From: Pagrus major
Lineage: Eukaryota > Chordata > Actinopteri > Spariformes > Sparidae
Length of the DNA stretch: 64,000 nt
Direction of reading: 5' to 3'
NCBI RefSeq assembly: GCF_040436345.1
Contig: NC_133223.1
Location: 13,707,613-13,771,612, forward strand
A model generated the notes under the pieces. The model was not told where the DNA came from and ran no database searches. It saw only the letters and a program-made list of their open reading frames with translations. Below, one piece after another: positions 19,785-32,342 of this stretch (positions within the stretch are counted from its first letter, which is position 1; every line of letters starts with the position of its first letter). Made by a program: the position numbers and the translations under genes.

Positions 19785-20205
19785 ATGCGAGCTCTGTATG
19801 TGTCAGTGCTGCTCGTTTCCCTTCTGCTCGGCTTCCTGCCGCCTATAGGTACATCAGCAGCTCACACAGAGCAATACACATGAGCGGACTTGACAGTGTA
19901 ATATACAGTAATTCTGACATGATGGACAAAGTGTGAAATAATGTTCACACCTCTTTCTGTCTTCGTCTCCTTTGACAGGAGCAGAGGAGAGCGTCGCCGG
20001 CGGGAGGAGGGAGGACAGGCAGAAACGAAGCCCGCCCTACTGGGGCCTGTGGTCGTCAGACTTTTTCGGGTGGTTGGAGGAGCTGCGAGCTCAGGCAGCT
20101 TACGAGGGGATGCAGGACCTGGCTCGCACCTTCTGGGCTCACTTCCCCATCAGCAACGAGCTGGGCTACGATAGTCCCGAGTCTGACCCTCAACCTGAGG
20201 AGTGA
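19785..20205 (+). CDS. otos: Otospiralin-like small secreted protein
   Basis: Two exons, 19785-19848 and 19979-20205, joined through a split glycine codon (g|ga, phase 1), give 96 residues. Exon 1 is a signal peptide (MRALYVSVLLVSLLLGFLPP). The mature part has an acidic/basic propeptide with a possible furin site RQKR (residues 35-38), then PYWGLWSSDFFGWLEEL, AAYEGMQDLARTFWAHFP and a short acidic tail. This matches otospiralin, a secreted inner-ear protein whose mammalian form has PYW...SDF, a DMARTFFAHFP block and about 89 residues. The acceptor tttcag precedes a short 5' UTR and the start codon. Human OTOS lies at 2q37, away from NCK2, so its position here is notable. The function in fish is not known to me. 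The fit to the family is good, but orthology is an inference from motif order. Confidence 0.85.
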
Positions 20206-20514
20206 GGAAGAAGAGAGACAGGGTGCAGATTTAAGAGTGTGAGGGTGGGTGGAAGCCTCCTTCAACATGTGTTTACATGTTCACAGCATGGGGACGTTGC
20301 TGTCTGTATGTATAAAAATATACAATTGTGTAGTATTTCTTCCCTATTGTGTTTCCTTTTAAAAAGTATTGAAGTGATAACTCTTTCCTTTGCCACAAAC
20401 TGGGTTTGCACATTTTGATGAAACTATAGAAATCATTGTTTTTAAACTTGTAAAGTATAGAAAATATGTAATGCTTCATGTCTTATACAACACTTATATA
20501 TTACATTTGTTTGC

Positions 20515-31800: not shown

Positions 31801-32342
31801 TCAATGCCTTCCATCACACACAAATATAACCCCACTTGCAGAGCCCATCTAAGCTTTCCTTCAGGTCACTGACTGTCATGTACAATTCACCAGGGATGGT
31901 CAGGAATGGAGGGAACAGATCATAACAACAGATAAAAAGGGAGCAGAGTGCACAAAATAACCCTCTCCCGCCACTGTTTTTGACAGCAGACAGCTTTTTC
32001 GTTTCACCCAGCTGGATTGGGATGCCATTTGCTGTGAAAGCATTGGCCTTTTCAACATTTGCCTTTTCATGCATCTCTGCTGCTGACGGTCTCAGTGGAC
32101 ACCTTATCAGCTGCCTCTGTGTCTATTAGCTTGAGGTTTGTCGAATTTCCTAACGAGTTACGTCTGTGGCGGGGATTTTGTTTCCTTACCAGAGGCTGGA
32201 GGCCGACCTGTCGTACTGGATGGACCACGCTCGCTCCAATGACCAAGGCCGTCAACACCACTATGATGAAAACGCCCCCATCGGCCCGCGTGACTCTGGT
32301 TCCTACAGACATGGAGCTAATGTCAATTATGACTACTATTAA
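25823..32342 (+). CDS. ecrg4: ecrg4 (augurin) secreted peptide hormone precursor
   Basis: Four exons (25823-25892, 29930-29977, 30078-30247, 32193-32342) join in frame to 145 residues; human ECRG4 has 148. Residues 1-23 form a signal peptide (MKLMGLAVLLTLLALR at its end). A short segment SSLHKILRKRD follows, then a low-complexity spacer and the processing site RTKR (68-71). The conserved augurin domain runs from NVWDRSRQDVQQW through FMYMGFDE and LSYWMDH to YDENAPIGPR and the tail RHGANVNYDYY. In mammals the precursor is secreted or surface-tethered and cut at the equivalent RxKR; it is linked to cell-cycle restraint and innate immune signalling. Splice phases are 1, 1, 0. The poly(A) signal is AATAAA at 32582-32587. 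Its neighbours nck2 and uxs1 match the human order. Fish can have two paralogues; which this is was not resolved. Confidence 0.95.
27640..27795 (-). repeat. Fish interspersed repeat, copy 2 of 4
   Basis: Reverse-oriented partner of 3036-3450. It contains gttagcatgcaaacatttac, a degraded gatgatggcgct block and gggatcaccaaagttattac, blocks also seen in the copy at 35940-36305. Confidence 0.65.
27838..27938. mobile_element. One end of a MITE
   Basis: The sequence ends in gagcctaatatgtccccttt followed by aa, so TTAA lies at the boundary. I recognise this terminus from a common teleost MITE. The opposite terminus was not found nearby, so only part of the element remains. Confidence 0.5.
28434..29308. 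mobile_element. Fold-back DNA transposon with about 350-400 bp inverted repeats and TTAA flanks
   Basis: The left arm (28434 to about 28785) and right arm (about 28908-29308) are inverted copies of each other over nearly their whole length. Examples are cgaaacgacgtcatttagta against tactaaatgacgtcgtttcg. The right arm has about 40 extra bases near its inner end. The tips read aggaatagttcactcta and tagagtgaactattcct. TTAA flanks both sides (28430-28433 and 29309-29312). The loop is about 120 bp and nothing resembles a transposase. The 169-residue minus-strand and 87-residue plus-strand open frames arise from the arms and are not genes. Confidence 0.85.
29392..29539. mobile_element. TTAA-flanked MITE, about 148 bp
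   Basis: The left end is gcacaagttcaaccaaaaat and the right end is atttttgggtgaactgttcc, an imperfect inverted repeat. TTAA flanks at 29388-29391 and 29540-29543. The middle block acaaaacatttctggagctt is shared with the repeat at 12930-13205. There is no coding sequence. Confidence 0.75.
29781..29840. repeat. Perfect 19-bp inverted repeat
   Basis: Positions 29781-29799 (cagctgattaggttgtgtt) pair exactly with 29822-29840, with a 22-nt AT-rich loop. It lies about 90 bp before ecrg4 exon 2. It may be a degraded MITE or a structured intron segment. Confidence 0.85.
29930..29977 (+). CDS. ecrg4: ecrg4 exon 2
   Basis: A 48-nt exon after the acceptor gaacag, completing g|at (Asp). It encodes VSSDSSLHKILRKRD and ends one base into the next codon before gtaaca. 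HKILRKRD corresponds to the KLMLQKRE region of mammalian augurin and carries a basic cluster. Confidence 0.85.
30078..30247 (+). CDS. ecrg4: ecrg4 exon 3: processing site and core domain
   Basis: A 170-nt exon from acceptor catccag to donor gtgggt (phase 0). It carries the Ala/Ser-rich spacer, LEFLSKLSRTKR with the cleavage motif, and NVWDRSRQDVQQW...MGFDEQ. Confidence 0.92.
30879..31116. mobile_element. Teleost DNA-transposon-like repeat
   Basis: Opens near acttatcaattagtctata and closes with caactaattgactaattg then ttgtagctctag. The middle has the order gtttggtccaaccagcggcc, cagaacccaaagactgatca and attgattatcaaaatggctg. This order matches a teleost repeat I recognise, usually counted as a non-autonomous DNA transposon. 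No target duplication was located. Confidence 0.6.
31185..31425. repeat. Fish interspersed repeat with retrotransposon-like tail
   Basis: Motifs gaagtcccgccccttccagt, ggttaatggtgagagacaaa and gtgccttgagttacaca are in the order of a familiar fish repeat. Sequence after 31388 (tttccctcgggatctataaa, then tatccatc repeats) is a typical fish LINE/SINE 3' tail and may be a separate element. Confidence 0.6.
32193..32342 (+). CDS. ecrg4: ecrg4 exon 4: C-terminal domain and stop
   Basis: Acceptor ttaccag, 49 codons and TAA. It encodes RLEADLSYWMDHARSNDQG, HHYDENAPIGPR and RHGANVNYDYY, all recognisable augurin C-terminal blocks. Confidence 0.93.
   Translation, partial: RLEADLSYWMDHARSNDQGRQHHYDENAPIGPRDSGSYRHGANVNYDYY

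What the first reader, a model, noticed from the sequence alone, without database searches (positions are those of the whole stretch)
19785..32342. Otospiralin-like gene and ecrg4 look like an ancient tandem pair
The two neighbouring genes encode small secretory proproteins with the same layout: a signal-peptide exon ending in phase 1, an R-X-K-R site (RQKR 35-38; RTKR 68-71), then the conserved domain. Without gaps, W43-D49-W53-E64-W74-S80-N81 of the otospiralin-like protein line up with W74-D80-W84-E95-W105-S111-N112 of augurin. The offsets are identical (0, 6, 10, 21, 31, 37, 38). Hydrophobic positions between them also agree (L54/I85, L57/F88, F73/Y104). From memory, human OTOS and ECRG4 show a similar register (W; D/E; Y/W; Q; F; G; T; F/Y; F/W). 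I know of no description of these families as related. Adjacency in this fish would fit local duplication, with later separation in mammals.
Basis: partly seen in the sequence, partly recalled or inferred. Interest (0 to 1): 0.85.

Follow-up and report, generated by a model that had tools for sequence, protein, structure and literature searches.

The report
Otospiralin-like and augurin genes, neighbours
Two neighbouring fish genes for small secreted proteins, one related to an inner-ear protein and the other a hormone-like protein, are linked in many teleost fishes and share a faint sequence and helix pattern that hints at, but does not prove, a common origin.

Summary
In this red seabream (Pagrus major) window, an otospiralin-like gene (otosl, 96 aa) lies about 5.6 kb upstream of ecrg4a (augurin, 145 aa), same strand, in the order nck2a-otosl-ecrg4a-uxs1. 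All quoted residues, offsets and exon phases check out. The linkage is not local to this species: consecutive locus tags in 4 fishes, and the same contig in 19 of 22 fishes that could be compared, including Umbra and Electrophorus. The deeper claim, that the two families are ancient tandem paralogs, is partly supported. The furin-type site is typical of otosl and augurin but was found in none of 48 true otos sequences. I give paralogy about 45%. No paper in the searched library holds both otospiralin and ECRG4.

The parts
6777..9248 (+). nck2a exons within this stretch (two SH3 domains and a split SH2 domain), upstream neighbour
   Evidence: Pfam SH3 and SH2 hits on two ORFs; assignment to nck2 by recalled sequence and by the NCK2a name of P0034, a gene model joined to otospiralin
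19785..19848 (+). otosl exon 1: start codon and signal peptide, ends in phase 1
19979..20205 (+). otosl exon 2: RQKR 35-38, W43, predicted helices 47-59 and 63-74, stop codon
   Evidence: P0001, named otospiralin-like [Pagrus major], is the same protein
25823..25892 (+). ecrg4a exon 1: signal peptide, ends in phase 1
29930..29977 (+). ecrg4a exon 2: 48 nt, phase 1 on both sides
30078..30247 (+). ecrg4a exon 3: RTKR 68-71, W74, first helix of the hairpin and its turn; ends in phase 0 after residue 96
   Evidence: helices from the model of the 145-aa ortholog P0063
32193..32342 (+). ecrg4a exon 4: nearly all of the second helix and the conserved C-terminal tail, stop codon
33360..52530 (-). uxs1, partly read (exons near 33.4 k, 34.4 k and 52.5 k), downstream neighbour
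   Evidence: translations; named from recalled UXS1 sequence only; the one ORF of it that was given to Pfam had no hit

Best explanation
otosl and ecrg4a are two secreted-proprotein genes that have stayed linked in a conserved block (here nck2a-otosl-ecrg4a-uxs1), and they may well be very distant tandem paralogs built on one module. Shown: a signal-peptide exon with a phase 1 end, a furin-type site just before a conserved tryptophan, and after it a predicted two-helix hairpin with the same spacing of W, D, aromatic, hydrophobic, G/A and aromatic positions. Inferred: the signal peptide is removed, a furin-type protease cuts after RQKR38 (otosl) or RTKR71 (augurin), and the freed hairpin, held together by its aromatic residues, acts as an extracellular binding unit; augurin adds a second conserved C-terminal tail. 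True otos would be a paralog of otosl that lacks or lost the cleavage site and here lies on another chromosome.
For: Both genes and all quoted residues. Linkage in 19 of 22 comparable fishes. Predicted helices: otosl 47-59 and 63-74, shifted by 31 = 78-90 and 94-105; augurin (ortholog P0063) 79-90 and 95-112. All-against-all Smith-Waterman above column shuffles: mean reached by 7 of 400 and maximum by 15 of 400; non-redundant sets 3 of 500 twice with BLOSUM62 and 0 of 500 with BLOSUM45; shuffles that keep the hydrophobic or aromatic pattern 0 to 24 of 1000 over 12 variants; whole pro-regions with no window choice p 0.01 and 0.0025, and of 207 real E. coli segments 0 to 7 reach the raw score. 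otos alone (7 and 5 of 500, only 2 or 3 sequences) and otosl alone (10 and 3 of 500) both show it. RX[KR]R before the W in 65 of 84 otosl-group and 121 of 121 augurin sequences. True otos has a signal exon, a 24-nt phase 1-1 exon and a domain exon, like ecrg4's first three.
Against: hhalign probability 0.26 to 0.5%, and 1.2% (E 0.044) with signal peptides kept; 98/300, 84/300, 100/300 and 165/400, 146/400 shuffles score as high. HMMER best single p 0.0007 but medians 0.06 to 0.08, and the window's own two proteins at 0.09 to 0.10; shuffled profiles reach the best score in 23 of 600 and the median in 33 of 600. With the augurin profile the best otosl alignments need gaps. None of 62 OTOS members scanned hits Augurin in Pfam, none of 50 augurins hits OTOS. 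By z-score 2 to 22 of 207 E. coli segments do as well. The phase 0 intron of ecrg4a after residue 96, at the start of the second helix, has no counterpart in otos or otosl. OTOS's strongest motif (ARTF.AH) is not in augurin, nor augurin's C-terminal tail in OTOS. RX[KR]R in 0 of 48 otos. Models have low overall confidence (pTM 0.40 and 0.28).
Confidence: 0.45

Rival explanations
1. Unrelated neighbours: two short secreted proteins independently have an amphipathic two-helix hairpin with a leading tryptophan and an aspartate helix cap; the linkage is old but says nothing about origin.
For: hhalign at background; no Pfam cross-hit; 3 of 7 quoted identities are not family-wide; different intron layout inside the hairpin; phase 1 after a signal peptide and RXKR sites are common in secreted proteins (general knowledge).
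Against: Family-level similarity exceeds shuffles that keep the hydrophobic pattern and most real unrelated segments by raw score; otos and otosl each show it.
Confidence: 0.45
2. The families are related, but the present adjacency is secondary: the duplication was older or elsewhere, and otosl came to lie beside ecrg4 in an early ray-finned fish.
Against: Nothing direct; the nck2-ecrg4-uxs1 order in human is recalled, not looked up.
Confidence: 0.1

Closest known systems
Otospiralin family (Pfam PF15182; OTOS of mammals, otos and otospiralin-like of fishes)
   Same: The window's otosl is a member (54.5 bits) and identical to the record otospiralin-like [Pagrus major]. A second gnathostome paralog of otos is mentioned in PMC13188829 (passages); zebrafish otos and otospiralin like are listed as duplicates in PMC11612004 (passages).
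   Different: Most otosl carry RX[KR]R, and W at two hairpin positions where true otos has no such site and Y or F.
Augurin family (Pfam PF15187; ECRG4/C2orf40)
   Same: The window's ecrg4a is a full-length member (206 bits), with the furin-type site that the review PMC10088197 places at residues 68-71 of the human protein (passages).
   Different: Augurin has a longer pro-region, an extra intron in the hairpin and a conserved C-terminal tail not found in OTOS.
UCMA family (Pfam PF17085)
   Same: 2 of 50 augurin members match, best E 0.0023.
   Different: Weak, in 2 of 50 members only, not followed up; the genome search for UCMA did not complete.

Membership tests
Otospiralin (PF15182), for otosl | score over the curated cut-off | tested here: met
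   54.5 bits against 27
Otospiralin (PF15182), for otosl | family core W, SDF, ART.., AH, LG | tested here: met
Augurin (PF15187), for ecrg4a | score over the curated cut-off over the full profile | tested here: met
   206 bits, profile 2-114 of 114
One superfamily for OTOS and augurin | significant profile-profile match | tested here: not met
   probability 0.26 to 1.2%; score at shuffle background; the 1.2% version with signal peptides was not shuffled
One superfamily for OTOS and augurin | family-level sequence similarity above composition and pattern controls | tested here: met
   moderate, p about 0.01; HMMER version p about 0.04 to 0.055
One superfamily for OTOS and augurin | same fold of the mature domain in the same register | tested here: inconclusive
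   helix boundaries coincide but low pTM, no coordinates to superpose, no PDB hit for either
One superfamily for OTOS and augurin | shared intron positions in the conserved domain | tested here: not met
   ecrg4a has a phase 0 intron after residue 96; otosl and otos have none in the domain
One superfamily for OTOS and augurin | linkage in basal vertebrate lineages | not testable with these tools
   no shark, gar, bichir or lamprey genome could be searched; linkage seen in teleosts only

The most novel reading that the evidence does not exclude
Otospiralin and augurin are ancient tandem duplicates that found a new superfamily of vertebrate secreted proproteins: a furin-released, W-anchored helical hairpin, still side by side in fishes, with otosl keeping the linked, cleavable state and mammalian OTOS a diverged, unlinked and non-cleaved form.
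Probability: 0.4. Interest if true: 0.62.

Novelty: new member of a known kind. Interest (0 to 1): 0.42.

Why it matters
No solved relative was found for either protein, and the review PMC10088197 calls the identification of augurin's receptor(s) still crucial (abstract passage). [quoted passage not shown] A fish gene that combines features of both would be the natural link to test. No paper in the searched library joins the two: 0 papers for otospiralin with ECRG4, 0 for ECRG4 with OTOS, and 1 for C2orf40 with OTOS, a cochlear expression list. The library lacks most subscription journals, so this is not proof of absence.

Tried and rejected
Foldseek and VIA-align 2 against the PDB: no match for either model, so no shared structural relative could be used. 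PDB sequence search: nothing better than E 0.33. Pfam cross-hits: none (HMMER's filters drop most weak matches). RXKR as a trait of the whole otospiralin family: rejected for true otos (0 of 48), kept for otosl (65 of 84, 2 of the 84 being mammalian otos, P0213 and P0225, that my sorting rule misplaced). A narrower count gave 56 of 133 for all otospiralins together and 116 of 120 for augurins. A text search for a piece of human augurin gave no paper, and one for UXS1, NCK2 and synteny none. The UCMA lead could not be followed.

Dropped rows and parts: P0060 (no full domain); sequences without a full window, whose 80% non-redundant sets were small (2 to 19 OTOS, 4 or 5 augurin). Structure prediction and Pfam scans used 62 of 131 otospiralin and 50 of 120 augurin proteins. 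Only 120 of 295 augurin hits and 120 of 326 otospiralin hits were listed, so the named augurin rows are all fishes, which weakens the profile tests.

Full report
What is there. The window is from red seabream: its otosl protein is identical to the record otospiralin-like [Pagrus major], on a contig of the same length, 35,148,973, as the window's own contig. otosl has two coding exons, 19785-19848 and 19979-20205, joined in phase 1, giving 96 aa. ecrg4a has four, 25823-25892, 29930-29977, 30078-30247 and 32193-32342, phases 1, 1, 0, giving 145 aa; other acceptors within a few codons would give 138 to 143 aa. I took the 145-aa form because that is the commonest length among the listed orthologs (50 of 120). 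Upstream lie SH3 and SH2 exons that I assign to nck2a, and downstream, on the other strand, exons that I read as uxs1 from recalled sequence.

Observation. Every residue and offset in the finding is correct. Whether it means something is another question. Over 132 otospiralin-family and 121 augurin domains, the quoted positions 0 (W), 6 (D), 10 (aromatic) and 31 (aromatic) are conserved in both families; 21, 37 and 38 are not. Other positions agree: 11 (V/L/I), 14 (F or L against F), 18 (G in otos, A or G in otosl, G in augurin), 25 (D against E), 29 (T against S), 30 (F/Y against Y) and 41 (G).

Linkage. The Electrophorus match joins an E. electricus row and a row named E. voltai; Menidia has a second augurin row on another contig length. 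The three that differ are Seriola lalandi, Larimichthys crocea and Scomber scombrus; their rows may mix assemblies, which I could not check. In the 4 fishes with locus tags on both, the tags are consecutive (Eleginops, Pampus, Scortum, Umbra). One Leuresthes gene model joins NCK2a and otospiralin (P0034). True otos is elsewhere: chromosome C19 here, and on a different contig from augurin in Stigmatopora argus and Osmerus mordax. So the linkage is seen in both Otophysi and Percomorpha. I could not look further out.

Sequence tests. Column shuffles do as well in 98/300, 84/300 and 100/300; the two reversed alignments score lower, 8.3 and 8.2 against 11.7. With the second set of alignments the probability was 1.2% (E 0.044) with signal peptides, not shuffled, and 0.26% without; without them 165/400 and 146/400 shuffles do as well. 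Only 5/400 and 3/400 of those also span 30 or more columns, a criterion that I chose afterwards. The augurin profile is thin (Neff about 2). HMMER, calibrated for a single comparison: otospiralin profile against augurins best p 0.0007, median domain p 0.066; augurin profiles against otospiralins best p 0.0012 to 0.0015, medians 0.06 to 0.08, with herring (P0251, which has an RGKR site) and Dallia (P0238) at the top. The window's own proteins give about 0.09 to 0.10. Shuffled profiles reach the best score in 23 of 600 and the median in 33 of 600.

All-against-all Smith-Waterman means give a clearer signal. Subset of 30 by 20: mean reached in 7 of 400 shuffles, maximum in 15 of 400. Non-redundant sets: 3/500, 3/500 and 0/500 (BLOSUM45), otos alone 7/500 and 5/500, otosl alone 10/500 and 3/500. 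Keeping hydrophobic or also aromatic patterns: between 0 and 24 of 1000 in 12 variants. Whole pro-regions, so that the window is not picked by hand: p 0.01 and 0.0025; single augurins 0 to 0.07 over 100 shuffles each. Of 207 segments of real E. coli proteins, 0 to 7 reach the raw score and 2 to 22 the z-score. I read this as about 1 to 5% chance under no relation: suggestive, with several correlated tests and no correction for having been pointed at this pair.

Structure. AlphaFold2 with 62 and 50 sequences. otosl (P0001): helices 47-59 and 63-74, with pLDDT block means 65 (41-50), 91, 88 and 80 (71-80), pTM 0.40. Augurin (P0063, an 89% identical ortholog of the same length, since the spliced window protein was not itself eligible as a contiguous translation): helices 79-90 and 95-112, block means 79, 88, 86 and 77, pTM 0.28. 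In the +31 register the starts agree within one residue and the first helix ends at the same place; the second augurin helix runs seven residues longer. A two-helix hairpin is a simple fold, so this supports but does not prove.

Gene structure. The phase 1 signal-peptide exon is shared but common in secreted proteins (general knowledge). True otos has a signal exon, a 24-nt exon in phase 1-1 and a domain exon, which resembles ecrg4's first three exons; otosl has no such small exon. Against this, ecrg4 has a phase 0 intron after residue 96, at the start of the second helix, that otos and otosl lack.

Processing. RX[KR]R lies within 12 residues before the domain W in 121 of 121 augurins, 65 of 84 otosl-group sequences (not in the catfish, cod and hake rows, among others) and 0 of 48 otos. 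For human augurin a furin-like site at 68-71 is described in PMC10088197 (passages). The same passages say that mutating the site did not change Wnt repression, so the uncut form may be active there. Cleavage of otosl is inferred.

Function. PMC13188829 (passages) reports otos in catshark chondrocytes, cites a zebrafish otospiralin gene in notochordal cells, and mentions a second gnathostome paralog. OTOS and C2ORF40 both stand in a list of macaque cochlear signature genes (PMC6197234, passages), among many others. I take the hairpin to be an extracellular binding unit released from a proprotein; this is inference.

Verdict. Paralogy is possible at about 45%, on a par with unrelated neighbours.

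Noticed in passing
augurin alignment A3 (50 sequences): Two of 50 augurin members match the UCMA family (PF17085, cartilage matrix protein), best E 0.0023. They were not among the 20 members that I rescanned. No paper in the library holds both UCMA and ECRG4.
   Followed up: partly
28430-29312: A foldback element in ecrg4a intron 1: inverted arms 28430-28622 / 29120-29312 (91% complementary) and 28619-28733 / 29008-29122 (100%).
   Followed up: partly
L003:419-1689: True otos of this genome has a 24-nt exon (965-988) in phase 1-1 that encodes EARVIPEG; Solea otos (P0237) carries the same stretch.
   Followed up: yes
P0034 (Leuresthes tenuis): A database gene model joins NCK2a SH3 sequence to otospiralin, probably a read-through or prediction artefact of neighbouring genes.
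   Followed up: no
otosl of catfishes, cod and hake (P0061, P0062, P0184, P0197, P0218, P0056, P0059): The RXKR site before the domain is missing in these rows, although herring, shad, pike, whitefish, Xyrauchen and Triplophysa rows have it.
   Followed up: partly
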